A stretch of DNA of 52,197 nucleotides from Phycisphaerales bacterium UBA4658 (GTDB taxonomy: Bacteria; Planctomycetota; Phycisphaerae; Phycisphaerales; UBA1924). This document shows positions 323-40,436 of the stretch, in pieces. Location of the stretch: assembly GCA_002405485.1 (NCBI GenBank), contig DHLW01000060.1:1-52197 (forward strand), given 5' to 3'. The translations under genes were made by a program, and so were the position numbers. The notes below the pieces were generated by a model, which did not search any database, was not told the DNA's origin, and was given only the letters and a program-made list of their open reading frames with translations. Numbering within the stretch: the stretch's first letter is position 1; each line of letters begins with the position of its first letter.

Positions 323-328
323 TATGCT
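323..328 (+). promoter_or_regulatory. -10-like TATGCT, leaderless type
   Basis: TATGCT ends 9 nt before the GTG at 338. No Shine-Dalgarno sequence precedes that GTG. The spacing supports GTG 338 rather than ATG 290 as the start. Inference from position only. Confidence 0.35.
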
Positions 329-337
329 TCGGGGATC

Positions 338-706
338 GTGGCCAAGAAACGCACGCTCATTCTGATTCGCTCCGTGCCGCCGGGCGCGGCGTCCGCGGGG
401 CTGTCGCCCCTGGGCTCGCTGCGCGAGGTGCGTGCGGCGCTCGGGCAGTGCAACATCTCGCCCGACGGGTCCGGGCCGCACGGCTACGGCGAGCGTCTGG
501 GAACGGGCGTGCTGCACGGTCCCGGCATGGTCATGGAAATCCCGTTGAGCGAAGAGCCGACGAGCAATCGCGGCGCGGGCCCGGAGATCAGCCAGGTGCT
601 GGTGAGCGTGACCGACGAGGACTTCGCCTTTCCGGTGCTCATGAAGCTCTGCAAGCTCAACGCCTGGAAGATGATGGACCCCGAGAGCGGACGCACGTTC
701 GGGTGA
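338..706 (+). CDS. Conserved hypothetical protein, 122 aa
   Basis: I do not recognise the family. The product begins with AKKRTLILIR, continues with a Gly/Pro-rich stretch, and has a mixed alpha/beta C-terminal half (SQVLVSVTDEDFAF, then LMKLCKLNAWKMMDPESGR). It has no signal peptide or membrane segment, so it is probably cytoplasmic. The frame is open back to ATG 290, which would add 16 residues. GTG 338 is preferred because the extra residues look non-coding (MDGALTPACSGYASGI) and a TANNNT hexamer lies 9 nt upstream. The gene is separated from the next one by a promoter-like site, so they need not share a transcript. Confidence 0.6.
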   Translation: MAKKRTLILIRSVPPGAASAGLSPLGSLREVRAALGQCNISPDGSGPHGYGERLGTGVLHGPGMVMEIPLSEEPTSNRGAGPEISQVLVSVTDEDFAFPVLMKLCKLNAWKMMDPESGRTFG

Positions 707-763
707 TTGTCGGCCATGGCGGGGGCACGCCCTGGCCAGAGCGTCTTCGCGGCCCGTGTGCTC

Positions 764-769
764 TACCCT
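764..769 (+). promoter_or_regulatory. -10-like TACCCT, leaderless type
   Basis: TACCCT ends 6 nt before ATG 776 and there is no ribosome binding site between them, matching the leaderless arrangement seen at many starts in this window. Confidence 0.45.
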
Positions 770-775
770 CCTCAC

Positions 776-1177
776 ATGCCACAGGAAACCAAGATGGAGC
801 CCCCGGCGGTGACCCAGCAGCGCGACAGCGTCGCCGGGTGGTCGGTGGATCTGGGCGACGACGACGCGACGTTCGATATCCTGGAAAAGGCCTTCGACTA
901 TCGCGGCGACGTGACGCTCACGCTCAAGGACGGCTCGGTGGTGGCCGGGTACCTGTTCGATCGCAAACGCGGCAAGACGCTGACCGACTCCAGCGTTCGG
1001 CTGCTCCCGCCGACGAGCGAGGAGCGGATCACGGTGCGATACGCCGACATCCGGCACATCGCCTTCAGCGACCGGGACCCCGCGGCGGGCAAGAGCTTCG
1101 AGACCTGGGTGAAGAAGTACATCGAGAAGAAGCTCAAGGGCGAGAAGGCGAGCATCGAGAGCGAAGCGCTGGATTGA
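776..1177 (+). CDS. Conserved hypothetical protein, 133 aa
   Basis: I do not recognise a named family. The central part (VTLTLKDGSVVAGYLFDRK ... ITVRYADIRHIAF) has the look of a small beta-barrel of the SH3/LSm type: a strand, a GSVVAGYLFDR turn-strand, and a final RYADIRHIAF strand. It is followed by a basic helix (ETWVKKYIEKKLKGEK). A ligand or RNA-binding role is possible but not shown. The frame is open upstream to 707, but ATG 776 has a TACCCT hexamer 6 nt upstream and the preceding residues are low-quality coding. Ends 51 nt before the convergent spoVR stop. Confidence 0.7.
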   Translation: MPQETKMEPPAVTQQRDSVAGWSVDLGDDDATFDILEKAFDYRGDVTLTLKDGSVVAGYLFDRKRGKTLTDSSVRLLPPTSEERITVRYADIRHIAFSDRDPAAGKSFETWVKKYIEKKLKGEKASIESEALD

Positions 1178-1228
1178 TTCCTGAGCACACAGGCGGGACG
1201 CCTGTGCCGCCAAAGCCAACGCAGCTCT

Positions 1229-2815: not shown

Positions 2816-2912
2816 GGTCTGGATATCGGCCCGAAGAGGGCCGGCATCTACTGACCTGTACGTTTGCGGGGCGTTCGGGGATCGTGCGATTCCGTGCCGA
2901 TCGGCGGGCGGA

Positions 2913-3395
2913 TCACCCGATCTCGTGAATCATCTTGGAGAAGTACGCCACGGCGAGCAGGATGACTGTCAACGCGGACGCAATAGAGAGGGCGTCGGCC
3001 TGGCCATCGGGCAATCGCCGAAACCATCGCCGCCCGCGCGCCGACGCCAGGAAGCCAGCGCCGACGCCCAGCAGCGGCCCGAAGATCCCGGGGATCAGGA
3101 CGATCCACCACAGTTCCGAGCCTGTCATTCGCCCTCTGGAACTCGAGAAGGCGATCACCGCGATCATGAGCAGGCACAGGAGCGGCGCCGAGCCGATGCA
3201 CAGCGTGATGATCGTGAAGATCAACATGCACAGGCGGTCCTCGGCGAGTCGCACCGCGATCTCCAGCCGCTGATTGCACTCCGGGCAGCGATCGCCCGTC
3301 AGCCCGCGCAGGTTGTACCCGCAGTTGGGACAGGGCGTGTCCTCTGCCGCGAGGATGTCGGCCAGCGCTCGCGTGCGTGCTTCGCCCGGGTCCAT
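2913..3395 (-). CDS. Zinc-ribbon membrane protein (CPNCGYNLRGL type)
   Basis: The 160-aa product has an N-terminal zinc ribbon, CPNCGYNLRGL followed about 10 residues later by CPECN, giving a CxxC-CxxC set of ligands. Three or so hydrophobic segments follow (LIFTIITLCIGSAPLLCLL, IVLIPGIFGPLLGVGAGFL and ASALTVILLAVAYF). The C-x-x-C-G-Y-x-L-R-G-L ribbon on membrane proteins is common in Planctomycetota; no function is established. The ribbon probably faces the cytoplasm. The frame is open to 3452, but ATG 3395 is chosen because TACGAT sits 6 nt upstream on the minus strand and the extra 19 residues do not look coding. Confidence 0.75.
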   Translation of the reverse strand: MDPGEARTRALADILAAEDTPCPNCGYNLRGLTGDRCPECNQRLEIAVRLAEDRLCMLIFTIITLCIGSAPLLCLLMIAVIAFSSSRGRMTGSELWWIVLIPGIFGPLLGVGAGFLASARGRRWFRRLPDGQADALSIASALTVILLAVAYFSKMIHEIG

Positions 3396-3401
3396 GCCCC
3401 C

Positions 3402-3407
3402 ATCGTA
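3402..3407 (-). promoter_or_regulatory. -10-like TACGAT, leaderless type
   Basis: On the minus strand TACGAT ends 6 nt before ATG 3395, with no Shine-Dalgarno sequence between. Confidence 0.4.
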
Positions 3408-3448
3408 CTGGACGGCCCCCGGTGCACGCGCAGCGATCCCGCAAAGCA

Positions 3449-3478: not shown

Positions 3479-3508
3479 GGAAGAAACACAGATTGTCGTG
3501 GCCGCTGT

Positions 3509-4432: not shown

Positions 4433-4461
4433 TTGCGGGCTCGCCGGGGCTGTGCTACCGT
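4433..4461 (+). promoter_or_regulatory. Promoter TTGCGG-17-TACCGT
   Basis: TTGCGG (4433-4438) and TACCGT (4456-4461) are separated by 17 nt. The -10 ends 10 nt before ATG 4472, so transcription would begin at or within about 3 nt of the start codon. Confidence 0.5.
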
Positions 4462-4471: not shown

Positions 4472-5599
4472 ATGTCCACGACGATCACGCTGCAGGAACT
4501 GACCAAGTCGTTTCCCGGTTCTGCCCCGGGGGCGGGTGGTGTGTCGACCACGGCGGTGGATCGGGTCTCGCTGACGATCGAGGCCGGGGAGTTGTTCTTC
4601 CTGCTCGGGCCGTCGGGATGCGGGAAGACCACGCTGCTGCGGATGATCGCGGGGTTCATCGAGCCGACCGGCGGGAGCATCCAGTTTGCTCCCTCGGGTC
4701 GCCCGGCCCGGGACGTGACCTTTGACCCCCCGAACAAGCGGAACACCGGGATGGTGTTCCAGTCGTACGCGCTCTGGCCGCACATGACCGTGGCTCAGAA
4801 CGTGGGCTTCGGGTTGACGGTCCGGAAGGTGCCGCCGGCGGAGCGGGACCGGCGTGTGATGGAGGCGCTCCAGGCGGTGCGAATGGAGGCGTATGCGCAG
4901 CGCCGGCCGAATCAGCTCTCGGGCGGGCAGCAGCAGCGTGTCGCGCTGGCCCGGGCGCTGGTGATCCGGCCGGACGTGTTGCTTCTGGATGAGCCGCTGA
5001 GCAATCTGGACGCGAAGCTCCGGCTGGAGCTGCGCGGGGAGATTCGGCGGATCTGCAAGCAGGCCGGCGAGGGCCAGCGGGGCATCACGACGGTGTACGT
5101 GACCCACGATCAGAAGGAAGCGCTCTCCATTGCCGACCGGATCGCGATCGTGAGCCAGGGGCGGATCGTGCAGATGGGCCCTCCGGCGGAGCTGTACCGC
5201 AAGCCGCACACTCGATTCGTCGCCGAGTTCCTGGGCGAAACGAACTTCATCGAGGGACAGGTTCACCAGCAGGACGGGCAGCGCCTGATCGTGCAGACGG
5301 GTCTGGGCAAGTTGATCTCGACCAGCGTGGCGCCGGGGGTCTTGAGCTCCGCGGGCACGCGGGTGCTCTGCTCGCTGCGTCCCGAGGCCTTCCGCATGGG
5401 CCAGCCAGATGGCACGAACACCATCGTGGGCCGGGTGCGCGAGAGCGTCTATCTCGGGGAGACGGCCCACCTCGATATCGAGACTCAGGGCGGGGGGACA
5501 CTTCGGGCTGCAACGCTCAATCCCGGGCTGAGCCACCGCGTCGGCGAGAGCGTGACCATGGGCATCGCCGCCGATGATGTCGTCGTGCTGCCGGCGTGA
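4472..5599 (+). CDS. ABC transporter ATP-binding protein (PotA/UgpC/FbpC type)
   Basis: The 375-aa protein couples ATP hydrolysis to import of a small solute. All ATPase motifs are intact: Walker A GPSGCGKT (46-53), Q-loop VFQSYALWPH with Gln97, signature LSGGQQQR (149-156), Walker B LLLDEP (170-175), D-loop SNLD and switch His212 (VTHDQKEA). The C-terminal third (about 240-375) is a TOBE/MOP-like regulatory region, typical of importers for polyamines, ferric iron, sulfate or sugars. No permease or binding-protein gene is adjacent, so the substrate cannot be inferred and the ATPase may serve transporters encoded elsewhere. An upstream extension to 4400 is open but lacks coding character. Confidence 0.93.
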   Translation: MSTTITLQELTKSFPGSAPGAGGVSTTAVDRVSLTIEAGELFFLLGPSGCGKTTLLRMIAGFIEPTGGSIQFAPSGRPARDVTFDPPNKRNTGMVFQSYALWPHMTVAQNVGFGLTVRKVPPAERDRRVMEALQAVRMEAYAQRRPNQLSGGQQQRVALARALVIRPDVLLLDEPLSNLDAKLRLELRGEIRRICKQAGEGQRGITTVYVTHDQKEALSIADRIAIVSQGRIVQMGPPAELYRKPHTRFVAEFLGETNFIEGQVHQQDGQRLIVQTGLGKLISTSVAPGVLSSAGTRVLCSLRPEAFRMGQPDGTNTIVGRVRESVYLGETAHLDIETQGGGTLRAATLNPGLSHRVGESVTMGIAADDVVVLPA

Positions 5600-8432: not shown

Positions 8433-8438
8433 TAGCAT
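8433..8438 (+). promoter_or_regulatory. -10-like TAGCAT, leaderless type
   Basis: TAGCAT ends 8 nt before the nuoD ATG at 8447, with no ribosome binding site between. Confidence 0.45.
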
Positions 8439-8446: not shown

Positions 8447-9733
8447 ATGCCCTTCACACTCAAGCCCGAGCACGGTTTCGGCGTCGACGTCGAGAAGACC
8501 GATTATCTCAAGCAGCACGTGGACACGGGCGAGCGATGGGTGCTGAACTTCGGGCCGCAGCATCCGGCGACGCACACGACGCTTCGGCTGGTGCTGGAGC
8601 TTGACGGCGAGCGGATCGCCCGCTGCACGCCGCACATCGGGTACTTGCACTCGGGCTTTGAGAAGCTCGGCGAGCATCTGGACTACAACCAGTACGTGAC
8701 GATCGTGTCGCGGATGGACTATCTGTCCCCGATCGCCAACGACATCTGCTGGCACCACGCGGTGGAGACGCTCTTTGGGATCGAGCTGACGCCGCGGTGC
8801 AAGGTTCTGCGGACGATCATGGCGGAGTTTGCCCGGATCCAGAATCACCTGCTGTGCGTCGGCGCGGCGGCGCTGGACCTCGGGGCGATCACGGGCTTCC
8901 TGTTCTGCTTCAATCCGCGCGAGCGCATCTACGACATCTGCGATTACATCAGCGGGCAGCGCTTCCACCCCGACTGGACCCGCGTCGGGGGGATCATGAA
9001 AGAGATTCCCGACGAGGCCGTGTTCGTCAAGCTCTGCAAGCAGGCCCTGGAGGACATCAAGAAGGCCATCGAGGAGACCGAGGGGCTGCTGAACCGCAAC
9101 CGCATCTTCATCGATCGCACGGCGGGAGTCGGGGTGATCGACAAGAAGGAAGCGATCGCCTGGTCGCTCACCGGTCCGATGGCGCGTGCCAGCGGCGTGG
9201 CCCGCGACCTGCGCAAGGACTTCCCGTATCTCTGCTACAAGGACAACTGGGACGGGCAGGGAGCGCGGGCAGTCGAGTTCAAGGTGCCTCTGGCCAACGA
9301 GGGCGACGCCTACGCCCGCTTCCGCGTGCGCGTGGAGGAGATCAAGCAGTCCCTGTTCATCCTCGAGCAGCTCGTGGACAACATCCCGGGCGGGCCCGTG
9401 GATGCGTTCAGCGACTCCAAGATGGTCAAGCCGCCCAAGAAGGACGTCTACGGCTCGATCGAGGGGCTGATCCAGCACTTCGAGCTCATCATGAGCAATC
9501 GCGGGTGGAACGCGCCGATCGCCGAGGCCTATGGCGCGATCGAGACCGCCAACGGCGAGCTTGGGTACTACATCGTGAGCGATGGCGGACCTCGGCCGTT
9601 CCGCGTGCGGACGCGGCCGCCGTGCTTCATCAACTACCAGGTGATGGCCAAGCTCACCGAGGGGCACATGCTCAGCGATGTTCCCGCGGTGATCGGCTCG
9701 ATCAACGTGGTGGCGGCGGAACTGGACCGGTAG
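8447..9733 (+). CDS. nuoD: NADH-quinone oxidoreductase subunit D
   Basis: The 428-aa product is the 49-kDa-type subunit of respiratory complex I, which forms part of the quinone-reduction site in the peripheral arm. Diagnostic blocks are NFGPQHPATH (34-43), HIGYLHSGFEKL (63-74), DYLSPIANDICW and RIQNHLLC, the RTAGVGVI/LTGPMARASG region, and the C-terminal DVPAVIGSINVVAAELDR. The length is usual for a stand-alone NuoD, not a NuoCD fusion. No other nuo gene is in the window, so the complex must be encoded in pieces. ATG 8447 is chosen over the open frame from 8408 because TAGCAT lies 8 nt upstream and the family N-terminus begins here. It converges with lepB. Confidence 0.96.
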   Translation: MPFTLKPEHGFGVDVEKTDYLKQHVDTGERWVLNFGPQHPATHTTLRLVLELDGERIARCTPHIGYLHSGFEKLGEHLDYNQYVTIVSRMDYLSPIANDICWHHAVETLFGIELTPRCKVLRTIMAEFARIQNHLLCVGAAALDLGAITGFLFCFNPRERIYDICDYISGQRFHPDWTRVGGIMKEIPDEAVFVKLCKQALEDIKKAIEETEGLLNRNRIFIDRTAGVGVIDKKEAIAWSLTGPMARASGVARDLRKDFPYLCYKDNWDGQGARAVEFKVPLANEGDAYARFRVRVEEIKQSLFILEQLVDNIPGGPVDAFSDSKMVKPPKKDVYGSIEGLIQHFELIMSNRGWNAPIAEAYGAIETANGELGYYIVSDGGPRPFRVRTRPPCFINYQVMAKLTEGHMLSDVPAVIGSINVVAAELDR

Positions 9734-10771: not shown

Positions 10772-10777
10772 TAACCT
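10772..10777 (+). promoter_or_regulatory. -10-like TAACCT, leaderless type
   Basis: TAACCT ends 7 nt before the trpS ATG at 10785. No Shine-Dalgarno sequence is present in the 7 nt. Confidence 0.5.
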
Positions 10778-10784: not shown

Positions 10785-11849
10785 ATGACCACCGTCAAGC
10801 CCCGCATCCTGACCGGCGACACGCCCACGGCGACGGGCCTGCACCTCGGGCACTTCGTCGGGTCGCTGGAGAATCGGCTGAGATTGCAGGACCAGTACGA
10901 CTGCTACTTTCTGATCGCCAACGTGCACGCGTTCACGACACTGAGCGACAAGCCCGAGCAGATCCGGGCCAACACGATCGGGATCGTGAAGGACTGGCTG
11001 GCGGTGGGGCTCGATCCGGAGAAGTCGACGTTCGTGCTGCAGAGCGAGATCCCGGCGATCGCCGAGCTCACGTTCCTGTTTGCCATGCTGCTTCCGTTCA
11101 ACAAGGTCATGCGCAATCCGACGCTCAAGACCGAGATCGAGAGCAAAGGGCTGGGCGACACGTACCCGTTCGGGTTTCCGATGTACGCGGTGGGTCAGTG
11201 CGCCGACATCCTGGCGTTTCGGCCGGAGCTCGTGCCCGTCGGCGAGGATCAGGAGGCCCACATCGAGATGTGCCGGGACGTCGCGCTGAAGTTCAACCAG
11301 ATGTACTGCGGCGTGGGCAACCGCGTGCCCGCCGATGAGCACGCCAAGGCGGGCGGCGTGTTCCCTGTGCCCAAGGCCAAGATCGGGCGGATCGCGCGGC
11401 TGGTGGGCACCGACGGCGTGCAGAAGATGAGCAAGTCGCTGAACAACGCCATCTTCCTGTACGACGAGCCCAAGCAGGTGCAGAAGAAGATCAACTCGAT
11501 CAACATGGGCCGCCCGACGATGACGAGCCCGATCCCCGAGAACCACGTGCTGCTGCAGTACGTCGACGCGTTCATCGGGGGCGAGCGAGCGGAACAGATC
11601 CGGGCCGACTACGTGCAGGGCAAAGAGGTCAAGGACGGCGTGATCAAGGCCGAGCTGGGCGAGGCGATCAACACGCTGCTCACGCCGATGCGGGAGCGCC
11701 GGGCGAGGTACGAAGGGCCGGCGGGAGACGACCTGGTCCTGGACATCATCCGAACGGGCGTGCGCAAGGCCAACGCCGTCGCCGAGGAGACCCTCTACGC
11801 CGCGAAGAAGGCGATGCGGATCGATTTTGGGACGCGAAAACTGGTCTAG
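10785..11849 (+). CDS. trpS: Tryptophan--tRNA ligase
   Basis: The 354-aa class I synthetase charges tRNA-Trp. The HIGH-equivalent motif is ATGLHLGHFVG (LHLGH at 19-23) and the KMSKS loop is intact at 214-218 (VQKMSKSLNN). DTYPFGFPMYAVGQCADIL and VGEDQEAHIEM line the tryptophan/adenylate pocket as in bacterial TrpRS. Length is normal. The start at ATG 10785 follows a TAACCT hexamer and fits the family N-terminus, whereas the open frame to 10557 does not. The TAG stop codon (11847-11849) is inside the left terminal inverted repeat of the small element at 11846-11982, so the element may have set or slightly altered the C-terminus. Confidence 0.96.
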   Translation: MTTVKPRILTGDTPTATGLHLGHFVGSLENRLRLQDQYDCYFLIANVHAFTTLSDKPEQIRANTIGIVKDWLAVGLDPEKSTFVLQSEIPAIAELTFLFAMLLPFNKVMRNPTLKTEIESKGLGDTYPFGFPMYAVGQCADILAFRPELVPVGEDQEAHIEMCRDVALKFNQMYCGVGNRVPADEHAKAGGVFPVPKAKIGRIARLVGTDGVQKMSKSLNNAIFLYDEPKQVQKKINSINMGRPTMTSPIPENHVLLQYVDAFIGGERAEQIRADYVQGKEVKDGVIKAELGEAINTLLTPMRERRARYEGPAGDDLVLDIIRTGVRKANAVAEETLYAAKKAMRIDFGTRKLV

Positions 11850-12041: not shown

Positions 12042-12047
12042 TAGAAT
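12042..12047 (+). promoter_or_regulatory. -10-like TAGAAT, leaderless type
   Basis: TAGAAT ends 8 nt before the cysS ATG at 12056; no ribosome binding site lies between. It is 60 nt past the end of the inverted-repeat element. Confidence 0.5.
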
Positions 12048-13749: not shown

Positions 13750-13755
13750 TAACCT
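13750..13755 (+). promoter_or_regulatory. -10-like TAACCT, leaderless type
   Basis: TAACCT ends 5 nt before ATG 13761. Confidence 0.4.
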
Positions 13756-14728: not shown

Positions 14729-14734
14729 TACAGT
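14729..14734 (+). promoter_or_regulatory. -10-like TACAGT, leaderless type
   Basis: TACAGT ends 8 nt before ATG 14743. Confidence 0.4.
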
Positions 14735-14742: not shown

Positions 14743-15717
14743 ATGCAGACGTTGGGTCAACAGGATGACGCCCGGCAGCCGGAGCAGTCCGCCTTGGACG
14801 CGGGCGACGTGCTGATTTCCTGCCGGAACGTGGTCAAGCGTTTCGACAGCCGAACGGTGCTCGACGGGGTGAGCTTCAACGTTCGCGCCGGGGAGACGAT
14901 GGTGATCATGGGCGGTTCGGGCTGCGGCAAGAGCACGCTGCTGCGATGCATGATCGGGTCGCACGCGATCGACGACGGGCGGATCGAGCTGTTCGGGCAG
15001 AACATCTGCGCGCTGAACCCTGAGCAGATGGATGACGTGCGGAAGAACTTCGGGATTCTCTTTCAGTCCGGCGCGCTGTTCAACTCCATGACCGTCGCCG
15101 AGAACGTGGCGCTTCCGCTGCAGGAGCACACGGATCTGGATCCCAGCACCATCGAGATCATGGTGAAGATCAAGCTGGAGCTGGTCGGGCTGCGCGAGCA
15201 CGCCGACAAGTTCCCGGCGCAGATCTCGGGGGGGATGAAGAAGCGGGCTGGGTTGGCGCGGGCTTTGGCGCTTGATCCGCGGATCCTGTTCTATGACGAG
15301 CCCTCGGCGGGGCTGGATCCGGTCACCAGCGCCGAGATCGACCGCCTGATCGTCGGGCTGACGCGCAAGGTCGGGGTCACGAGCGTCGTCGTGACCCACG
15401 AGATGGACTCGGCGTTCACGATCGCCGACCGCATGGTCATGCTCGACAAGGGTCGCGTGCTTCGGGAGGGTTCGCGGGAGATGTTCGATGATCTCCGCAG
15501 GCTCCCCGAGGACCGGGCGGCGGATCTGCCGGAGGAGGACCGGCTGATCCGGCAGTTCCTGCGCGGCGACGCCGAGGGGCCCATCACAGAGCGCAAAGCC
15601 GCCACGAGCTACGCCGAGGACCTGCTCCGTCAGCCCGAGACCGCCAAGCCGATCGGCCCGAGTATCGAGGCGACCCGCGGGTGGGGCTTCAGACGGCGCA
15701 AAGACCAGCTACCCTGA
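14743..15717 (+). CDS. MlaF-like ABC transporter ATP-binding protein
   Basis: The 324-aa ATPase belongs to the MlaF/Ttg2A branch that powers MCE-type lipid transport between the envelope membranes. Walker A is GGSGCGKST (57-65), Q-loop Gln108 (LFQSGALFNSMTV, a strongly MlaF-like sequence), signature ISGGMKKR (161-168), Walker B LFYDEP (182-187) with the MlaF-type SAGLDPVTS D-loop, and switch His219 (VTHEMDSA). The C-terminal 70 residues are a charged tail not present in short family members. The gene sits 6 nt before the MlaD-like gene, so co-transcription is likely. No MlaE permease is encoded in the window, although mlaE normally adjoins mlaF. Confidence 0.92.
   Translation: MQTLGQQDDARQPEQSALDAGDVLISCRNVVKRFDSRTVLDGVSFNVRAGETMVIMGGSGCGKSTLLRCMIGSHAIDDGRIELFGQNICALNPEQMDDVRKNFGILFQSGALFNSMTVAENVALPLQEHTDLDPSTIEIMVKIKLELVGLREHADKFPAQISGGMKKRAGLARALALDPRILFYDEPSAGLDPVTSAEIDRLIVGLTRKVGVTSVVVTHEMDSAFTIADRMVMLDKGRVLREGSREMFDDLRRLPEDRAADLPEEDRLIRQFLRGDAEGPITERKAATSYAEDLLRQPETAKPIGPSIEATRGWGFRRRKDQLP
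15710..15715 (+). promoter_or_regulatory. -10-like TACCCT before the MCE gene
   Basis: TACCCT ends 8 nt before ATG 15724 and overlaps the end of the ATPase gene. Because the two genes are 6 nt apart this may be an internal promoter or chance. Confidence 0.25.
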
Positions 15718-18642: not shown

Positions 18643-18648
18643 TATGCT
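18643..18648 (+). promoter_or_regulatory. -10-like TATGCT, leaderless type
   Basis: TATGCT ends 6 nt before ATG 18655. Confidence 0.45.
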
Positions 18649-18654: not shown

Positions 18655-19347
18655 ATGGCGCAGCGTCGTCACCACTATGAGCGGGCCTTCGAGTGGTTCC
18701 TGCGCTCCCGGCGGATTCCCTATGTCGCCGTCGACGAGGCCCGCAAGGCCCTCCTGCCGGAGTCTGCGACGCTGGCGGTTTCGACATCGGTCCGGTCCCG
18801 CACGTCGACACCGGAGTCGGGGGAGTCTGGCCCAGCCGCCGCCCTCAAGTCCTTCGACTTTGTGATCTACGGCGATGCCGGTTCGAACCTGCTCATCGAC
18901 ATCAAGGGTCGGCGCGTCGGCTCGTCGCGCCGCATCCGCGGCGATGCCGGTCTCTCGACCGGCCGGCTCGAGTCATGGGTCACCATGGACGACATCGACT
19001 CGCTGCGCTCCTGGGAGCAGCTCTTCGGGTCGGGATTCCAGGCCGCCTTTGTGTTCGTGTACTGGTGCGACCGACAGCCTCCCGACGCTCTGTTCCAGGA
19101 GATCTTCGAGTATCGCGGCGTGTGGTACGCGCTCCGGGCCGTCACCCTGCTGGCATACGTGCAGCACATGAAGGTCCGCAGCCCCAGATGGCGCACCGTG
19201 GACGTGCCCCGCGGTGCGTTCGAACGCATCTCGCACGCCTTTGCTCCCTCCCCGTCGGAGCTCGCCCACGGCGGTCAAGCCCTGTTCGACCTCGGGCCCG
19301 ATGTGCCCACGCTCCTGCCGCTCCAGCCGGTTCGACCTACCCTCTAA
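18655..19347 (+). CDS. HYExAFE family protein, nuclease-like fold
   Basis: The 230-aa product carries the family signature HYERAFE at residues 7-13. HYExAFE proteins are annotated in Planctomycetota without a known function. Reading the sequence, the core looks like a PD-(D/E)XK endonuclease: helix 1 with Glu13, then SFDFVIYG (Asp68), then a strand LLIDIKGRRV that supplies Asp82-x-Lys84. This D...D-x-K spacing is the metal site of restriction-endonuclease-like folds. The C-terminal half is aromatic-rich (AAFVFVYWCD, FEYRGVWYALRAVTLLAYVQHM). Nuclease activity is inference. The start at 18655 is set by the signature position and the TATGCT site. It is not adjacent to a restriction or repair gene. 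Confidence 0.82.
   Translation: MAQRRHHYERAFEWFLRSRRIPYVAVDEARKALLPESATLAVSTSVRSRTSTPESGESGPAAALKSFDFVIYGDAGSNLLIDIKGRRVGSSRRIRGDAGLSTGRLESWVTMDDIDSLRSWEQLFGSGFQAAFVFVYWCDRQPPDALFQEIFEYRGVWYALRAVTLLAYVQHMKVRSPRWRTVDVPRGAFERISHAFAPSPSELAHGGQALFDLGPDVPTLLPLQPVRPTL
19338..19343 (+). promoter_or_regulatory. -10-like TACCCT, leaderless type
   Basis: TACCCT ends 6 nt before ATG 19350, overlapping the last codons of the upstream gene. Confidence 0.35.
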
Positions 19348-19349: not shown

Positions 19350-19592
19350 ATGCCAAAGACACTCTCCCGACTCGTGTGCGTCGGCCTCTGTGCCCTGGGT
19401 GCGGCGGCCATGTCCGCCCCGGCACTGGCCCAATCGACCAGCGGCACACGGAAGGTCGAACCCCTCACCCCGCCCACGCCCCCGCCTACCAACGCCGGCA
19501 CCCCGTGGATGCCCATGATCACCATGTTCGTGCTCCTGGCCATCATCGTCGGGGTGAACTTCCTCCCGAGCAAGCGCGGCCACCAGGACTGA
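19350..19592 (+). CDS. Small secreted or membrane protein, 80 aa
   Basis: An N-terminal signal sequence (LVCVGLCALGAAAMSAPALAQ) is followed by a Thr/Pro-rich linker (PLTPPTPPPTNAG) and one hydrophobic segment, PMITMFVLLAIIVGVNFLPS, with a short positively charged end. It would be a small single-pass membrane protein with its N-terminal part outside the cytoplasm. The single C-terminal helix resembles YajC/TatA-sized subunits only in size; no family match is claimed. It starts 2 nt after the HYExAFE stop codon. Confidence 0.75.
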   Translation: MPKTLSRLVCVGLCALGAAAMSAPALAQSTSGTRKVEPLTPPTPPPTNAGTPWMPMITMFVLLAIIVGVNFLPSKRGHQD

Positions 19593-31809: not shown

Positions 31810-32721
31810 TTAGTGCAGCGTAATCTGCGTTCCGATGCCCTCGTCGGTATAGATCTCAAGGAGCAAGGAATGAGGGATGCGCCCATCGATGATGTGGGCT
31901 TTGGGAACACCGGCGTTGAGCGCCACCAGGCAGGCGTCGACCTTGGGCAGCATTCCTTCCCCGATCACCCCTGCCCGAATGAGCTTGTCGATCTGGGACT
32001 TGGTCAACGTGGAGGCATAGGCGTCCGGGTCTTCGCTGCTGGTTCGGATGCCGTGCGTGTCCGAGAGCATGACGAGCTTCTCGGCCTTCAGGGCGGCGGC
32101 GACGTGACCGGCCGCGGTGTCGGCGTTCACGTTCAACTTGCCGGGATCGTCCGGATCGGGCGGATCGGTCGGTCGGCGACGCCCCATGGCGACCGGGGCG
32201 ATAACCGGGATGTACCCGTCGTCGCAGAGCGCCCGCAGGAGCACCGCGTTCACTTCCATGATGTTCCCGACGTACCCGAGATCGACCCGTTCCCTGGTTT
32301 TGGGGTCCGTGAGCGCCATGCGCTCGGCGATGAGCACGCACGAGCCCAGCGAGTGCAGCCCGATGGCCCGGGAACCCGAGGCATTCAGGTTGTCCACCAG
32401 GAACTTGTTGACCTCGTTGACAAGAACGTTCTCGGCGATCTCGAGCGTCGCCTTGTCGGTGTAGCGGCGGCCCTGGATGAACCGGGCCTTCAGCCCCGCC
32501 GCGTTCATCGCTTCGGTGATGGACTTGCCCCCGCCGTGGACGATGATCGGCTGCATGCCCACGCCCGACATGAACGCCACGTCGGTGAGCAGGGCCCGCA
32601 TGCGCTCGTCATCCTCCTGGATGGAGCCCCCGACCTTGACGACGACGACCTTGTCGCGGAACGACTGGATGTAGCGGTGGGCCTCGATGAGGGCCGCGGC
32701 TTTGGCAATGGCAACGTCCAT
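31810..32721 (-). CDS. argB: Acetylglutamate kinase
   Basis: The 303-aa cytoplasmic enzyme phosphorylates N-acetylglutamate, the second step of arginine synthesis. Diagnostic motifs are VVVVKVGGS (Lys27-Gly29 region), IIVHGGGKSITEAM (glycine-rich substrate loop), LGYVGNIMEVN, LNVNADTAAGHVA and LVMLSDTHGI; GEGMLPKVDACL and AHIIDGRIPHSLLLEI at the C-terminus are typical of AGK. An N-terminal helix (MDVAIAKAAALIEAHRYIQSF) of the kind linked to arginine-sensitive hexameric AGK is present, so feedback inhibition is likely but inferred. ATG 32721 is preferred to TTG 32730; TACACT lies 8 nt upstream. No other arg gene is nearby. Confidence 0.95.
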   Translation of the reverse strand: MDVAIAKAAALIEAHRYIQSFRDKVVVVKVGGSIQEDDERMRALLTDVAFMSGVGMQPIIVHGGGKSITEAMNAAGLKARFIQGRRYTDKATLEIAENVLVNEVNKFLVDNLNASGSRAIGLHSLGSCVLIAERMALTDPKTRERVDLGYVGNIMEVNAVLLRALCDDGYIPVIAPVAMGRRRPTDPPDPDDPGKLNVNADTAAGHVAAALKAEKLVMLSDTHGIRTSSEDPDAYASTLTKSQIDKLIRAGVIGEGMLPKVDACLVALNAGVPKAHIIDGRIPHSLLLEIYTDEGIGTQITLH

Positions 32722-32729: not shown

Positions 32730-32735
32730 AGTGTA
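32730..32735 (-). promoter_or_regulatory. -10-like TACACT, leaderless type
   Basis: On the minus strand TACACT ends 8 nt before the argB ATG. It lies in the 18-nt gap to the upstream gene, so argB may have its own leaderless start inside an operon. Confidence 0.35.
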
Positions 32736-34813: not shown

Positions 34814-35683
34814 TCACCAGGCCATGACCTGCACGATGCGTTCCGGGGCATCGCCCGGCGGACCGGGGACCGGCCCTGTGCGCAGGGTGTACAGCGGCAT
34901 CTGCCGAGGGCAGTTGATGCGCAGGTGCTCGACCATGCCGTCGCCCAGGCCTCGCGAGATGCAGCAGAGCGTGTTCCGCAGCCGGAGCACCCCGGTGGCC
35001 CTGTCCGGGGGCAGATCGCTGGAGGTGTGCGGGGCGAGCTTGGCGTGCACCCGGACCTGCCCGGCGTGGGTGTGACCGGCGAGCAGGATCGGGATCCCCA
35101 ACTCTGCACAGCCGACGATCGCGGTGGGGTGGTGGCCCAGGGCGAGTCGGAACGTCTCCAGGCCGCTCACGTCCGGGGGTGCCTGCAGCAGCACGCCCAG
35201 CGGGTCCTCCGGCCAGTCCAGCCCGATCAGGCGGAGGTTTGCGCCGCCCATGGCCAGGTCCAACGCGCGCCCGCCGATGCAGTTCAGGGCCGGCAGCTCC
35301 CGAGTGCAGCGTCGGCGGAACTCGGGCGTGTCGTGATTGCCGAAGACGCAGAACACGCCGATGCGCGGCCGCCAGTGCCGGCTCATGACCTGGAGCGTCT
35401 CGAGTGCGGCGTGCTCGTGCCCGGGCTCGTCCATGAGGTCGCCGGTCAGGGCGATGAGGTCGGGCTCGACGTGTTCCAGAGCGTGGAGGATGACCCGGTA
35501 GCGCTCGGTGGCCAGGAGCGACCGCCGGACGTGCAGGTCGGAGATGTGCAGAATCGTGAGCCCGTCAAGCCCGCTGGGGAGGGCCGGGTGGCGGATGTCG
35601 AACCGCTCGATCGGCGCCGGGGGCATGGGCGTGCGGAACGAGGTGTCGGGCGATCGAGGGTGTTGGCCGGGGTTCCGGTGCAC
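34814..35683 (-). CDS. Metallophosphoesterase
   Basis: The 289-aa product has the calcineurin-like two-metal site: ILHISDLHVRR (D-x-H), LIALTGDLMDE (GD), VFGNHDTPE (GNHD), LALGHHP (GH) and LAGHTHAGQV (GHxH). This is the YkuE/YaeI subgroup layout of cytoplasmic phosphodiesterases; substrate unknown. The frame runs to a GTG at 35683, and TACGCT lies exactly 6 nt upstream of it on the minus strand, so the GTG start is preferred to ATG 35626, which would remove only a disordered N-terminus. It is divergent from the DUF2071-like gene, with 32 nt between start codons. Confidence 0.9.
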   Translation of the reverse strand: MHRNPGQHPRSPDTSFRTPMPPAPIERFDIRHPALPSGLDGLTILHISDLHVRRSLLATERYRVILHALEHVEPDLIALTGDLMDEPGHEHAALETLQVMSRHWRPRIGVFCVFGNHDTPEFRRRCTRELPALNCIGGRALDLAMGGANLRLIGLDWPEDPLGVLLQAPPDVSGLETFRLALGHHPTAIVGCAELGIPILLAGHTHAGQVRVHAKLAPHTSSDLPPDRATGVLRLRNTLCCISRGLGDGMVEHLRINCPRQMPLYTLRTGPVPGPPGDAPERIVQVMAW

Positions 35684-35689
35684 GTGCGC

Positions 35690-35706
35690 AGCGTACGCCG
35701 TATCGT
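35690..35706. promoter_or_regulatory. Back-to-back leaderless promoters, first divergent pair
   Basis: Minus strand: TACGCT (35695-35690) ends 6 nt before GTG 35683. Plus strand: TATCGT (35701-35706) ends 9 nt before ATG 35716. The two -10 hexamers are 5 nt apart, so two polymerases could not be bound together and each -35 region would fall in the other gene. Confidence 0.45.
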
Positions 35707-35715
35707 GTGCCCCGC

Positions 35716-36708
35716 ATGCCGCACCCGTTCATGACAGGTTGGTGGGGGAGTGTCGCGGTGCTGAGCTGGGCCGTGCCCGCGGCGGTGCTGGCGCGGTATC
35801 TCCCGGCGGCGCCCGCGTCGGGCGCGGGAGGGTTGCGCGCGCTCGGTGACGCCGCCGGCGGGGGGCCGGGCGGATCGAACGCGCGGCGCGGCGGGATGCC
35901 GCTGACGTTTCACGCAGACGGTGCGCCCGCGGAGAACCCGCTCCGTCTGGACGCCCCCATGCACCCGTGTTTCCTCAGGGGGGATCGCAGTTCGGCGACG
36001 GGTGCCGTGGTCAGCATCGTGGCCCGGCACTGCACCCACATGCGCCTGCTGGGCGTCCGCTGGCCGGGAGTCGCCAGAACGTCGTCCGTCAGCATGCAGT
36101 TCTACGTGCGACATGGGCAGCGTCCCGGGGTGGTCTGCGTGCGCGAGGTCGTGAGCAGCCGGGTCGTCGCATGGGCGCAGCGCAAGGCCCACAACCACCC
36201 CAGCGTCGCCGCGCCCATCGAGTGCGAAGTCAAGCAGCAGACGATGCTCATCGGGACGGAGTATCGGGTGCTCTGGCCAGAAGGCGGGCTGGCGCCCGCG
36301 GCCCATGTGACTCGGCAGATGCCGGTGCGCGAGCACATGCTGCGCGGGGTCGGTTCCAAGCCCGCGACGCGCCCCGGCGGGGCCGGGCACGCCGCATTGC
36401 CCACGAGCACGCCCGGCGAAACCGGCCCGGAGACGGTGGAACGCTGGCTGACCGATCGCCCGCTGGTGTTCGGGGCCGATCCGACCGGCCGGGGGCTTGT
36501 GTACGAGATCATCCATCCGTCCTGGGGCGTGCACCCGACGGTTGACGCCGAGGTCCGCATGGATATCGCGGGGATGTTCGGCCCGGACTTCGGCTTCCTG
36601 ACCGGGCGCGAGCCGCAGCACGCGATGCTCGCCGTGGGCAGCGAAGTAGCCGTCTTCCCGCGTCGGCAGAGCGCGGTGGTCAGATGGGGCGAGCGGCGGG
36701 AGCGCTGA
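35716..36708 (+). CDS. DUF2071-like protein (YqjF type)
   Basis: The 330-aa product begins WGSVAVLSWAVPAAVLARYLP, like the opening of DUF2071 proteins, and has the aligned core SMQFYVRHGQRPGVVCV, SRVVAWAQRKAHNHPSVAAP and YRVLWPEGG. DUF2071 members have an acetoacetate-decarboxylase-like beta-barrel and no known substrate. The C-terminal EIIHPSWGVHPTVDAEVRMD and PQHAMLAVGSEVAVFP are consistent with the end of the barrel. An insertion rich in Gly/Ala lies near residues 35-65. The gene starts at ATG 35716, 9 nt after TATCGT. Confidence 0.65.
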   Translation: MPHPFMTGWWGSVAVLSWAVPAAVLARYLPAAPASGAGGLRALGDAAGGGPGGSNARRGGMPLTFHADGAPAENPLRLDAPMHPCFLRGDRSSATGAVVSIVARHCTHMRLLGVRWPGVARTSSVSMQFYVRHGQRPGVVCVREVVSSRVVAWAQRKAHNHPSVAAPIECEVKQQTMLIGTEYRVLWPEGGLAPAAHVTRQMPVREHMLRGVGSKPATRPGGAGHAALPTSTPGETGPETVERWLTDRPLVFGADPTGRGLVYEIIHPSWGVHPTVDAEVRMDIAGMFGPDFGFLTGREPQHAMLAVGSEVAVFPRRQSAVVRWGERRER

Positions 36709-36718
36709 CGCTCCCGGG

Positions 36719-37108
36719 CTAGGCCTGCCGGCGGCGGCACTCCTCAAGAAACTCCACCCCCCGCCGAAGGTGCGGAATCACGATCGAGCCGCCCACGATC
36801 AGGCCGACGTCGAAGGTCTCCCAGATCTCCTTGTCGCTGGCCCCAGCCTGCACGCACTGGTCGATGTGATACGCGATGCAGTCGTCGCAGCGCAGCACCA
36901 TGCTCGCGGCGAGGCCCAGCAGTTCCTTGGTCTTCTTGTCCAGTCCGGGCGGGGTCTCGGTGCTTGTGTCGCGATAGGTCTGGTCATCGAGGGCAAAGAA
37001 CCGCTTGGTGACCAGCGTTCCCGCGCCGGGCTGCCCGCTTCCCGGAGCGCCGAGGATCTTCTGGTTCAGGCGAGATCGAAACTCCTGGAACTGCTCGTAC
37101 CTGCTCAT
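36719..37108 (-). CDS. AhpD/carboxymuconolactone decarboxylase family protein
   Basis: The 129-aa cytoplasmic product matches the AhpD-like fold: LDKKTKELLGLAASMVLRCDDCIAYHIDQ with the redox pair CDDC and the nearby His, then ASDKEIWETFDVGLIVGGS. In the family the CxxC acts with a Glu and His relay as a peroxidase/reductase centre; this set is intact. Partners such as AhpC are not adjacent. ATG 37108 is chosen because TACGAT ends 5 nt upstream and the longer frame to 37135 adds only nine poor residues. It is divergent from the gene at 37149. Confidence 0.88.
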   Translation of the reverse strand: MSRYEQFQEFRSRLNQKILGAPGSGQPGAGTLVTKRFFALDDQTYRDTSTETPPGLDKKTKELLGLAASMVLRCDDCIAYHIDQCVQAGASDKEIWETFDVGLIVGGSIVIPHLRRGVEFLEECRRRQA

Positions 37109-37113
37109 GCGGA

Positions 37114-37142
37114 ATCGTACGACTCGGATTCCCAACTACACT
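37114..37142. promoter_or_regulatory. Back-to-back leaderless promoters, second divergent pair
   Basis: Minus strand: TACGAT (37119-37114) ends 5 nt before ATG 37108. Plus strand: TACACT (37137-37142) ends 6 nt before ATG 37149. Only 40 nt separate the two start codons. Confidence 0.45.
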
Positions 37143-37148
37143 TTCGCC

Positions 37149-37586
37149 ATGTCCCACGCTCCTCCAGCCGCTCGGATTGCCGCCTCTCCCGCTGGGCAGA
37201 CGGGTGTCCGGTCCGTCGCGGTGGCGATGGCGATGGTCCTGGGTCTGACGCTGTGGGGGCTATTCATCGCGCTGGTGGCGATCCTCGGGCCCAGGTACAC
37301 GGAGCTGTTCCGCGACTTTGGCGTGCAGATCCCGTTCACGACCCGGTGGTTCATCGAGCTTTCGGAGTTCATGCGATCGCCGATCACGCTCGGGCTCGTC
37401 GCGGCGGCTCCGGTGGCGGTGCTGCTGATCCTGGGAGCCAGTGCTCTGCGTGCTGGGCGCGGAGCGTTGATCGCGATGTACGTGTTCGCGCTCGCCGCGC
37501 TCCTGCCGATCGCGGGGTTCATCCTGTCCATGACGCTCGTCGCGGCCCGCATCGCTGGACAGATGCAGAGCGGCGCCGGGAACTGA
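37149..37586 (+). CDS. Membrane protein, 145 aa
   Basis: Three hydrophobic segments are visible: SVAVAMAMVLGLTLWGLFIALVAI, ITLGLVAAAPVAVLLILGAS and ALIAMYVFALAALLPIAGFIL, with the periplasmic or cytoplasmic loop GPRYTELFRDFGVQIPFTTR between the first two. The loop phrase and helix order resemble small type II secretion GspF-like fragments only superficially, so no family is claimed. ATG 37149 fits the TACACT site; the longer frame to 37005 is antisense to the AhpD-like gene. Confidence 0.75.
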   Translation: MSHAPPAARIAASPAGQTGVRSVAVAMAMVLGLTLWGLFIALVAILGPRYTELFRDFGVQIPFTTRWFIELSEFMRSPITLGLVAAAPVAVLLILGASALRAGRGALIAMYVFALAALLPIAGFILSMTLVAARIAGQMQSGAGN

Positions 37587-37605
37587 CCGTTTGAGGTGCG
37601 GGCGA

Positions 37606-38148: not shown

Positions 38149-38195
38149 GGAGCGTCACTCCGATGGATGCTGGCGAGTGCCAGGCAAGGGTGCGA

Positions 38196-38786: not shown

Positions 38787-38818
38787 CGATCGTTCCTTAT
38801 CTGATCTCATTCCGACGT

Positions 38819-39667
38819 TCATCCGCGCAGAAGTGTGCCCATTCGTTCCGACCACGACGCCGCGACGCGCTCGACCATCGAGCGCTTCTCTCCCCAGATG
38901 GACACCCAGAACATCGGCGTGAACGCGCGCACGTCGCTCTGCGGGATCACGCCACCGGGCTCCAGCTCGATGCGCATCAGTGCATCGTCCAACTCGCGCA
39001 CCACGCCCGCGAACATGCGGTCGGGCACATGCCGCACAACCGTGCCGGAGTACGACGCTCCGTCGGGGCCAACCAGGGCGTACGCGTCGCCTTCGTTCAG
39101 CCCGGCGATCGAGCCCGATGTGCACAGGCCATTCCCGTCAACACGCCACAGGCGCGACCAGATGGCCTTCTGCCCCATCGGCTCGGGCGGCGGCACGGGA
39201 TTCCACACGCACGCGCGGTCCTTGCCGGGGTGCCTCGACAGATAGTGCCGAAGCGAGCGCAGTTCGAACTTCCATCCGCTGGAGATCGAGTCGTAGTAGT
39301 CCGCCCACTTCGCCTCCTTGCCGAAGCCCGATTGCGTGACGCGGACGACGGTGGTCTCTTCGGCATCGTTGTGCGAGACGATCTCGAACATGCCGGTGAC
39401 CTGGACCGCGCCGCCATCGTGCGTCTCGGTCCAGGCCAGCGCCCGGCCGGGCTCCCAGAGAGTGATCGGCGCCTCGCCCTCGCACGCCGGACCCCAGGAG
39501 AGAAACACGCTTCCTCCCAGCCCGGGCTTCACCCACGCCGAGATCGGGAACCACCTCTGCAGCTCGGCTCCGTCGGAGAGCGCCTGCCAGACGTCCTTGG
39601 GCGTAGCACGCACTTCGATCTCGAAACTGAACTTCTCCGGCAAAGACGTTGGCTGGCTCATGCTCAT
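38819..39667 (-). CDS. SRPBCC/AHSA1 domain protein
   Basis: The 282-aa product has an N-terminal AHSA1-type SRPBCC domain (FEIEVRATPKDVWQALSDG, ELQRWFPISAWV, ITLWEPGRALAWTE, EETTVVRVTQSGF, YDSISSGWKFELRSLRHYL) followed by a second, more divergent half with MFAGVVRELDDALMRIEL. Its ATG overlaps the TGA of the ArsR gene (39664-39667). Pairing of an ArsR-type regulator with an AHSA1 protein is common in bacteria, usually with unknown ligand. The overlap fixes the start. Confidence 0.85.
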   Translation of the reverse strand: MSMSQPTSLPEKFSFEIEVRATPKDVWQALSDGAELQRWFPISAWVKPGLGGSVFLSWGPACEGEAPITLWEPGRALAWTETHDGGAVQVTGMFEIVSHNDAEETTVVRVTQSGFGKEAKWADYYDSISSGWKFELRSLRHYLSRHPGKDRACVWNPVPPPEPMGQKAIWSRLWRVDGNGLCTSGSIAGLNEGDAYALVGPDGASYSGTVVRHVPDRMFAGVVRELDDALMRIELEPGGVIPQSDVRAFTPMFWVSIWGEKRSMVERVAASWSERMGTLLRG

Positions 39668-40299
39668 TCTCCGGGCGTGGGCGAGGGTGTGTGGGGGTCC
39701 TCGGGTCGTGTGATGGCCGGATAGCCGCCGACCGTGAACTTGAACAGTCGGCCGGCGTCATCCCCGCCGGCGACGTGGTGCTTGGCGGACAGCCGTGCCA
39801 GCGCGTCGGTGAGCTCGGCGGCAAAGGCGTGCATCGACTCCGGAGATGCGAAACGCACCTCGGTCTGGAGCGTGAGCGTGGGGAGCTTCTTGCCGGCACG
39901 CTCGGCACGGCCGCGCAGAATCCCCACCTCGCGGATCGTCTCGGCACACACCGCAACGAGATACGCCGAGCTCAGCCGATCCTGCACGTTCGCGGGCGTG
40001 GCGCCGATGGCCCCAAGCACCTCGGGCGAGACCAGATACCCCCGGGCCGTGGCCCGGACCACCCGCTCCATGCAGTTCCCGCGCTTGCGCTCCTCGACCA
40101 GTTCCACGAGCCCGACCTTCTCAAGCTCGCGCAGGTGGTAGTTGATCCGCTGCCGGGGCTCGCTCAGTCGGCGTGACAACTCGGTCGCCGACGCCGGTTC
40201 ATGCAACTCCTGCATGAGCCGAAGCCGAGTCGGTTCCAACAGCGCGGCCGCCTGGCTCGGCTGGTCCAGCACCTCCAGTTGCCGCGCGGGATGACCCAT
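39664..40299 (-). CDS. ArsR-family transcriptional regulator
   Basis: The 211-aa product has an N-terminal winged helix: LLEPTRLRLMQELHEPAS, ATELSRRLSEPRQRINYHLRELEKVGLV with the recognition helix RQRINYHLREL, and the wing VELVEERKRGN. The remaining 120 residues are helical and end in a Pro-rich tail; no CxC metal site is seen, so it probably does not sense arsenite or other metals in the usual way. It overlaps the SRPBCC gene. Its own promoter (40306-40334) has an inverted repeat over the -35, which suggests autoregulation by inference. Confidence 0.87.
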   Translation of the reverse strand: MGHPARQLEVLDQPSQAAALLEPTRLRLMQELHEPASATELSRRLSEPRQRINYHLRELEKVGLVELVEERKRGNCMERVVRATARGYLVSPEVLGAIGATPANVQDRLSSAYLVAVCAETIREVGILRGRAERAGKKLPTLTLQTEVRFASPESMHAFAAELTDALARLSAKHHVAGGDDAGRLFKFTVGGYPAITRPEDPHTPSPTPGE

Positions 40300-40305
40300 G
40301 ACTTG

Positions 40306-40334
40306 ACGGTATCACCGACAACATTGTTTGTCAA
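40306..40334 (-). promoter_or_regulatory. Strong promoter TTGACA-17-TACCGT with inverted repeat
   Basis: On the minus strand TTGACA (40334-40329) and TACCGT (40311-40306) are 17 nt apart and the -10 ends 6 nt before the arsR ATG. GACAA (40317-40321) and TTGTC (40328-40332) form a 5-bp inverted repeat with a 6-nt centre across the -35 and spacer, a plausible operator. The region is A/T-rich against the surrounding sequence. Confidence 0.65.
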
Positions 40335-40402
40335 GACAGAAATGCAATTCCATATCAAGATGAACGTTTGTGGGGGTACGGGCAGGTGGATGAGGGGGTG
40401 TT

Positions 40403-40431
40403 TTGGCGGGTGCGGGGGCCGGGCGTACCCT
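40403..40431 (+). promoter_or_regulatory. Promoter TTGGCG-17-TACCCT
   Basis: TTGGCG (40403-40408) and TACCCT (40426-40431) are 17 nt apart; the -10 ends 5 nt before the ispD ATG, so the transcript would be leaderless or nearly so. Confidence 0.5.
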
Positions 40432-40436
40432 GCGGG

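What the first reader, a model, noticed from the sequence alone, without database searches (positions are those of the whole stretch)
323..40436. Widespread TANNNT hexamers 5-10 nt before start codons predict leaderless transcripts
Reading upstream of each start, at least nineteen genes have TANNNT ending 5-10 nt before the ATG/GTG and usually no Shine-Dalgarno site: starts at 338, 776, 3395(-), 4472, 8447, 10785, 12056, 13761, 14743, 15724, 18655, 19350, 32721(-), 35683(-), 35716, 37108(-), 37149, 40299(-) and 40437. With A and T each near 16% in this DNA, a chance hit in that 6-position window would be expected at only a few percent of starts. A -10 at this distance puts the transcription start at the start codon. 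Leaderless genes with TANNNT promoters are well known in Deinococcus and mycobacteria; for Phycisphaerae I know of no established description. Most dockerin genes (22614, 26988, 43147, 46297, 51292) instead have ribosome binding sites, so the two gene classes may be translated by different initiation routes.
Basis: partly seen in the sequence, partly recalled or inferred. Interest (0 to 1): 0.72.

Follow-up and report, generated by a model that had tools for sequence, protein, structure and literature searches.

The report
Leaderless-gene promoters in Phycisphaerales bacteria
Many genes in this uncultured planctomycete carry a promoter box so close to the start codon that the messenger RNA probably begins at the start codon itself, a known bacterial arrangement that sequence comparison shows here in one order of planctomycetes.

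Summary
All 19 listed starts have TANNNT ending 5-10 nt upstream; none has a Shine-Dalgarno (SD) 4-mer. A gene caller blind to upstream motifs, on 1.23 Mb of the same assembly, gives 114 of 808 genes with TANNNT there against 14.0 expected, peaking at 6 nt. These genes nearly lack SD (5/114 versus 222/694), favour ATG, are absent from overlapping same-strand starts (0/38), and make up 11/34 of the safest starts. The signal recurs in five sampled genomes of the same order (weak in one), at cysS in 59 of 79 relatives, and resembles Thermus and Deinococcus controls; E. coli, one same-phylum genome and two Planctomycetia plasmids lack it. In a close relative all five comparable sites keep T, A and T; at two the inner bases changed. 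Best explanation: sigma-70-type -10 elements giving leaderless mRNAs for roughly 15-30% of genes. The mechanism is known elsewhere; I saw no description for Phycisphaerae in the searches run. TANNNT is also depleted at dockerin genes (1 of 32). RNA 5' ends were not available.

The parts
323..328 (+). TATGCT, spacer 9 to GTG at 338
   Evidence: blind start agrees; orthologue in another locus also has TANNNT
764..769 (+). TACCCT, spacer 6 to ATG at 776
   Evidence: blind start agrees
3402..3407 (-). TACGAT, spacer 6 to ATG at 3395
   Evidence: blind start agrees
4456..4461 (+). TACCGT, spacer 10 to ATG at 4472 (ABC transporter ATPase)
   Evidence: blind start agrees
8433..8438 (+). TAGCAT, spacer 8 to ATG at 8447 (NADH dehydrogenase 49 kDa subunit)
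   Evidence: blind start agrees
10772..10777 (+). TAACCT, spacer 7 to ATG at 10785 (class I W/Y-type tRNA synthetase)
   Evidence: blind caller chose 10680
12042..12047 (+). TAGAAT, spacer 8 to ATG at 12056 (cysteinyl-tRNA synthetase, cysS)
   Evidence: TANNNT in 59 of 79 orthologues, 37 of 41 rows in the tree clade with the window, the window included
13750..13755 (+). TAACCT, spacer 5 to ATG at 13761
   Evidence: blind start agrees
14729..14734 (+). TACAGT, spacer 8 to ATG at 14743 (ABC transporter ATPase)
   Evidence: blind start agrees
15710..15715 (+). TACCCT, spacer 8 to ATG at 15724 (weak MlaD match, below Pfam's cut-off); overlaps the end of the upstream gene, doubtful promoter
   Evidence: blind start agrees
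18643..18648 (+). TATGCT, spacer 6 to ATG at 18655 (HYExAFE family)
   Evidence: blind start agrees
19338..19343 (+). TACCCT, spacer 6 to ATG at 19350; overlaps the end of the upstream gene, doubtful
   Evidence: blind caller chose 19410
32730..32735 (-). TACACT, spacer 8 to ATG at 32721 (amino acid kinase family)
   Evidence: blind start agrees; unchanged in L184
35690..35695 (-). TACGCT, spacer 6 to GTG at 35683; one half of a back-to-back divergent pair
   Evidence: blind caller chose 35626; TACGCT and GTG unchanged in L184
35701..35706 (+). TATCGT, spacer 9 to ATG at 35716; other half of the pair
   Evidence: blind caller chose 35758; TATCGT and ATG unchanged in L184
37114..37119 (-). TACGAT, spacer 5 to ATG at 37108; divergent pair
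   Evidence: blind start agrees; L184 reads TAGAGT at the same place: T, A, T kept, three inner bases changed
37137..37142 (+). TACACT, spacer 6 to ATG at 37149; divergent pair
   Evidence: blind caller chose 37227; L184 reads TACTCT with the ATG kept
40306..40311 (-). TACCGT, spacer 6 to ATG at 40299 (HTH regulator); TTGACA lies 17 bp upstream at 40329-40334
   Evidence: -35 read directly from the sequence printed; blind caller chose 40272
40426..40431 (+). TACCCT, spacer 5 to ATG at 40437 (IspD)
   Evidence: blind start agrees

Best explanation
TANNNT is the -10 element of the housekeeping (sigma-70-type) promoter. RNA polymerase starts about 6-7 nt after its last T, on or within a few nt of the start codon, so the mRNA has no leader or a very short one and no SD. 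Translation would then start by direct recognition of a 5'-terminal start codon. Genes inside operons use ordinary SD-led starts, and dockerin-bearing or exported proteins are seldom leaderless. Shown from sequence: motif, spacing, lack of SD, operon pattern, conservation, distribution. Inferred: that transcription starts from this box, the 5' end, and the ribosome route.
For: 114 of 808 genes against 14.0 expected, sharp peak at spacers 5-8; ANNNTA, ATNNNT and TTNNNA stay near background. SD 4-mer in 5/114 versus 222/694; ATG in 100/114 versus 466/694. TANNNT in 0/38 overlapping same-strand genes, 36/105 at gaps of 15-59 nt, 9/15 at divergent gaps under 60 nt; 14/265 rising to 11/34 with start certainty. 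Five genomes of the same order: 15 vs 3.8, 13 vs 0.7, 7 vs 3.2, 15 vs 5.8, 23 vs 5.5 expected. cysS 59/79. Thermus 9/47 and Deinococcus 12/79 show the same mode at 6 nt. L184 keeps T, A and T at all five sites that could be compared, with inner bases changed at two.
Against: No transcript 5' ends. No clear -35 consensus in the 114 genes: TTG at spacer 17 in 5, and TTGACA matches of 4 or more of 6 in 11/114 against 5/114 and 11/113 at shifted positions. TNNNAT, a control that partly matches the same sites, is also raised (48 vs 27.3). G039 is weak. The P. mikurensis plasmid has only 4 of 73, though 0.3 were expected. Thermus has 2 of 25 genes with TANNNT at same-strand gaps under 10, so the operon rule is not absolute. 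Co-conservation in orthologue pairs also exceeds expectation for control hexamers, so the ratio alone is not specific. EM class fractions are not calibrated: shuffled sequences also gave 26% to a different, weak motif.
Confidence: 0.86

Rival explanations
1. The box acts in translation: an AU-rich, weakly structured or S1-binding element just before the start codon of a leadered mRNA, not a promoter.
For: Nakagawa et al. 2017 (PMC5397173, passages seen) say AT-rich signals at -20 to -10 could be Pribnow boxes or S1 sites, and their single planctomycete had a positive score on that axis.
Against: A translation signal should also serve operon-internal genes, yet 0/38 overlapping genes have it. 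Fixed T, A, T with variable inner bases and the 6-nt mode fit a -10 box. Three of four rearranged hexamers stay near background; the fourth, TNNNAT, overlaps the same sites and rises only 1.8-fold against 8-fold for TANNNT.
Confidence: 0.06
2. The boxes are real -10 elements, but many of these genes also have an upstream promoter or a short leader of a few nt, so strictly leaderless mRNA is not the only or main product.
For: Spacers 9-10 (13 of 114) predict leaders of about 3-4 nt; in six of the distant cysS loci the box lies 11-28 nt upstream.
Against: 101 of 114 sites have spacers 5-8, and few carry an SD to serve a leadered form.
Confidence: 0.25
3. Artefact of choosing starts that happen to follow TANNNT, or chance in AT-poor DNA.
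Against: The blind caller scored no upstream sequence; P about 2e-62.
Confidence: 0.01

Closest known systems
TA-led leaderless genes of bacteria (Zheng et al. 2011, PMC3160421; passages seen)
   Same: Consensus TANNNT about 12 bp upstream of the start counted from the first T (spacer 6 plus hexamer 6 here); high-GC genomes show the TAnnnT form.
   Different: The passages name the groups with leaderless genes; 'Planctomycetes', 'Rhodopirellula' and 'Phycisphaera' have 0 occurrences in the main text. An 'Other Bacteria' row (8 of 20 genomes) is not broken down in what I saw. The lineage looks new to that list, the mechanism is not.
Deinococcus-Thermus -10 motif next to ORFs (Life Sci Alliance 2025, PMC12340547; passages seen)
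   Same: TANNNT next to the ORF; experimentally shown there to act as -10; weak dependence on other promoter sequence; GGAG as the second motif class.
   Different: That work is experimental and in another phylum; here only sequence. My profile of D. radiodurans MP1 and Thermus pTT27 shows the same mode of 6 nt.
Mycobacterial leaderless transcripts (Cortes et al. 2013, PMC3898074; search listing only)
   Same: Many leaderless genes; TANNNT promoters there are recalled, not read.
   Different: Different phylum; 5' ends mapped there.
Leaderless class of GeneMarkS-2 (as summarised in StartLink, PMC9581028; passages seen)
   Different: Whether Phycisphaerae were in that set could not be checked: the 2018 paper is not held.

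Membership tests
Bacterial TA-led leaderless genes | TANNNT about 12 bp upstream (first T) with sharp positional peak | tested here: met
   114/808 versus 14.0 expected, mode spacer 6
Bacterial TA-led leaderless genes | No SD at these genes | tested here: met
   5/114 versus 222/694; window 0/19
Bacterial TA-led leaderless genes | Confined to genes that can be first in a transcript | tested here: met
   0/38 overlapping genes, 1/25 at gaps 0-14, 36/105 at gaps 15-59, 29/333 at larger gaps
Bacterial TA-led leaderless genes | mRNA 5' end at the start codon | not testable with these tools
   no RNA data
Bacterial TA-led leaderless genes | Translated without a leader by direct start-codon recognition | not testable with these tools
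   no translation data; ATG preference 100/114 is only suggestive
Classical sigma-70 promoter with -35 | TTGACA-like -35 at 16-19 bp | tested here: inconclusive
   one clear case at 40299; no consensus over 114 genes
SD-led genes (the other class in this genome) | GGAGG-type site and intact anti-SD | tested here: met
   16S 3' end reads CACCTCCTTTCTAA; SD 4-mer in 222/694 non-TANNNT genes against 102/694 at a control position; 23/38 overlapping genes

The most novel reading that the evidence does not exclude
Phycisphaerales divide their genome between two initiation routes by protein destination: cytosolic, singly transcribed genes are leaderless, while exported and dockerin-bearing proteins keep SD leaders, so that a change in ribosome or initiation-factor state could switch the cell between housekeeping and secretion; with head-to-head start codons 32-40 bp apart acting as mutually exclusive promoter pairs.
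Probability: 0.25. Interest if true: 0.65.

Novelty: new member of a known kind. Interest (0 to 1): 0.47.

Why it matters
It adds an order of an unusual phylum to the bacteria with abundant leaderless genes, and gives single-base predictions of transcription starts for genomes that are mostly uncultured. It also matters for annotation: start prediction tuned to SD sites may misplace starts here. The depletion of the signal at dockerin genes raises a simple hypothesis about how exported proteins are expressed.

Tried and rejected
Chance or composition: rejected by control hexamers and flanks. Stop codon of the upstream gene mistaken for TA: rejected, only 1 of 25 genes at gaps 0-14 has the box. 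A strong -35: not found. Orthologue-pair ratio as proof: dropped as unspecific, because ANNNTA and TNNNAT also co-occur above expectation, though in smaller numbers (both members: TANNNT 68 of 565 pairs with 19.5 expected, ANNNTA 9 with 0.3, TNNNAT 28 with 6.7). EM class sizes: kept only as a rough guide. Rfam scan of the window: nothing above threshold. A control gene (20655) failed with a machine error.

Rows dropped before counts: genes with a start under 80 nt from a stretch end, with N nearby, or open at the 5' end (877 called, 808 used); about 37 kb of the 1.23 Mb reads N; one cysS locus (L172) without a start nearby (79 of 80 used). Dockerin genes: 134 matches genome-wide; I passed on the 50 on contigs of which I held all or part, and 32 usable genes resulted. 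cysS starts were taken as the nearest in-frame ATG/GTG to the start of the tblastn match, without regard to the motif; the blind caller's own starts gave 40 of 63 in one cysS cluster.
Full report
Check of the sites. I read all 19 listed starts back from the window. Each has TANNNT with a spacer of 5-10 nt and none has AAGG, AGGA, GGAG or GAGG at -20 to -4. Two of them, 15724 and 19350, have the hexamer inside the last codons of the gene upstream and are weaker candidates. The site at 40299(-) reads TTGACA, 17 bp, TACCGT, 6 nt, ATG: a complete sigma-70-type promoter whose predicted start point is the ATG, though the blind caller preferred 40272 for that gene.

Genome-wide test without circularity. 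I wrote a gene caller that picks starts from coding statistics and start-codon type only, never from upstream sequence. It was run on the window plus 80 stretches of the same assembly, 1.23 Mb in all: 877 genes, 808 with 80 clean upstream bases. TANNNT at spacers 5-10 occurs in 114 genes against 14.0 expected from positions 35-70 nt upstream, with 22, 38, 18 and 23 at spacers 5, 6, 7 and 8 and 0-5 per position at spacers 0-4 and 11-30. ANNNTA, ATNNNT and TTNNNA give 9, 34 and 29 against 8.3, 28.0 and 21.8; TNNNAT, which partly matches the same sites, gives 48 against 27.3. The count depends on start accuracy: 14 of 265 where the start is least certain, 11 of 34 where it is most certain. Allowing alternative starts within 4 score units gives 139 of 801 at spacers 5-8 against 17-21 of 801 for TANNNT at five other spacings, an excess of about 15%; the four control hexamers give 7, 38, 65 and 73. 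An EM fit assigns 20% to a TA[C/T]NNT class, but its fractions are not calibrated. I therefore put leaderless genes at roughly 15-30%, the upper end being an extrapolation from the safest starts.

Why a promoter and not a ribosome signal. TANNNT genes have an SD 4-mer in 5 of 114 cases, against 222 of 694 other genes and 24 of 114 at a control position in the same genes; ATG is the start in 100 of 114 against 466 of 694. The 16S 3' end carries a normal anti-SD, so SD use is possible and does occur. By neighbour distance, TANNNT is found in 0 of 38 overlapping same-strand genes, 1 of 25 at gaps 0-14, 36 of 105 at gaps 15-59 and 29 of 333 at larger gaps; 23 of the 38 overlapping genes have an SD 4-mer. 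Divergent pairs with gaps under 60 nt have it in 9 of 15 genes. A transcription start signal predicts this pattern; a translation enhancer does not. A spacer of 6 puts the canonical start point on the A of ATG (the last T of a -10 at -7 is recalled knowledge), and position -1 is C in 33 of 38 spacer-6 genes; but C at -1 is also common in other genes (62% of SD genes), so this is weak. No -35 consensus emerges.

Relatives. The nearest named relative by CysRS is L184, a MAG labelled Phycisphaerales, at 88% identity. The same blind method on 200 kb each of five genomes of the same order gives 15, 13, 7, 15 and 23 hits against 3.8, 0.7, 3.2, 5.8 and 5.5 expected; a genome known only to share the phylum (G064, 50% GC) gives 4 against 6.8. 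In 80 named loci around cysS, the cysS start has TANNNT at 5-10 nt in 59 of 79 cases, with flanks that mostly look unlike each other; in the tree the clade of 41 rows that holds the window has 37, and the label changes at least about ten times over the 81 rows, so it has been lost or gained repeatedly. Leaving cysS out, the closer loci (L172-L213) have 74 of 444 genes and 36 of 41 loci with at least one, the more distant ones (L214-L251) 32 of 353 genes and 21 of 37 loci.

Controls from named records, using annotated starts: Thermus thermophilus pTT27 9 of 47 genes and Deinococcus radiodurans MP1 12 of 79, both with mode 6; Phycisphaera mikurensis pPSMK1 4 of 73 (0.3 expected); E. coli 2 of 47 (4.5 expected); Isosphaera and Singulisphaera plasmids 2 of 52 (1.7 expected). 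In Thermus 2 of 25 genes at same-strand gaps under 10 have TANNNT, so the operon rule is not absolute there; Deinococcus has 0 of 26.

Single-site conservation. Aligning the window to L184 covers five of the listed starts with their full upstream stretch. All five keep start codon and TANNNT. At 32721, 35683 and 35716 the hexamer is unchanged. At 37108 it is TACGAT here and TAGAGT in L184; at 37149 it is TACACT and TACTCT: T, A and T stay, inner bases change. At 35683/35716 and 37108/37149 the divergent start codons are only 32 and 40 bp apart and carry outward -10 boxes; such promoters should exclude each other (inference).

Dockerin genes. NCBIfam's GC-type dockerin domain is found in 22614, 43147, 46297 and 48374 above cut-off and in 26988 just below it (above it); the 51292 gene is cut by the window end, and a match lies at 54328-54486 of the same contig, probably in the same gene. 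Pfam's Dockerin_1 does not find them. Genome-wide there are 134 NCBIfam matches at E up to 0.001. Among the 32 usable genes in my sample, 1 has TANNNT at any plausible start against 161 of 776 others (Fisher P 0.011); at the blind start 1/32 versus 113/776, P 0.07. SD is not significantly commoner: 20/32 versus 358/776 at any plausible start (P 0.07), 11/32 versus 216/776 at the blind start (P 0.43). Genes with a hydrophobic N-terminus are also rarer in the TANNNT class: 18 of 112, against 75 of 221 SD genes (P 0.0005) and 109 of 470 with neither signal.

Literature. Zheng et al. 2011 (PMC3160421; passages) define TA-led leaderless genes with TANNNT about 12 bp before the start, detected in 207 of 953 bacterial genomes, and name the groups; 'Planctomycetes', 'Rhodopirellula' and 'Phycisphaera' have no occurrence in the main text, but an 'Other Bacteria' row is not broken down in what I saw. 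Nakagawa et al. 2017 (PMC5397173; passages) include one planctomycete and list the phylum among those with a leaderless and/or S1 bias. StartLink (PMC9581028; [quoted passage not shown] PMC12340547 (passages) shows experimentally that TANNNT next to ORFs is a -10 in Deinococcus. PMC10783764 (passages) has a row for Phycisphaerae in its anti-SD table and, in the passages shown, does not describe leaderless genes there. I searched 'leaderless' with Planctomycetes, planctomycete and TSS, Phycisphaerae, dRNA-seq with Planctomycetes, and others and saw no description for Phycisphaerae. Limits: searches list 25 of 299 and 10 of 1,055 papers; of the 11 papers I looked into one; the library is open-access only, and the GeneMarkS-2 paper is not in it.

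Verdict. The mechanism is known in other phyla; the lineage, the order-wide recurrence at cysS, the back-to-back divergent pairs and the dockerin depletion are what is added.

Noticed in passing
window 40306-40334 (-): Complete TTGACA-17-TACCGT promoter placed so that the predicted start point is the ATG of an HTH regulator at 40299.
   Followed up: partly
window 35683-35716 and 37108-37149: Two head-to-head gene pairs with start codons 32 and 40 bp apart, each with outward -10 boxes, both conserved in L184; likely mutually exclusive promoters.
   Followed up: partly
G000 genome-wide; window 22614-52197: 134 matches to the GC-type dockerin domain (NF041540) in one 3.9 Mb assembly, none in the 14 control genomes.
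   Followed up: partly
cysS upstream in L223, L226, L227, L231, L233, L243: In these distant loci a TATTCT or TATCCT box lies 11-28 nt upstream of cysS instead of 5-10, as if the promoter had moved away and given a short leader.
   Followed up: no
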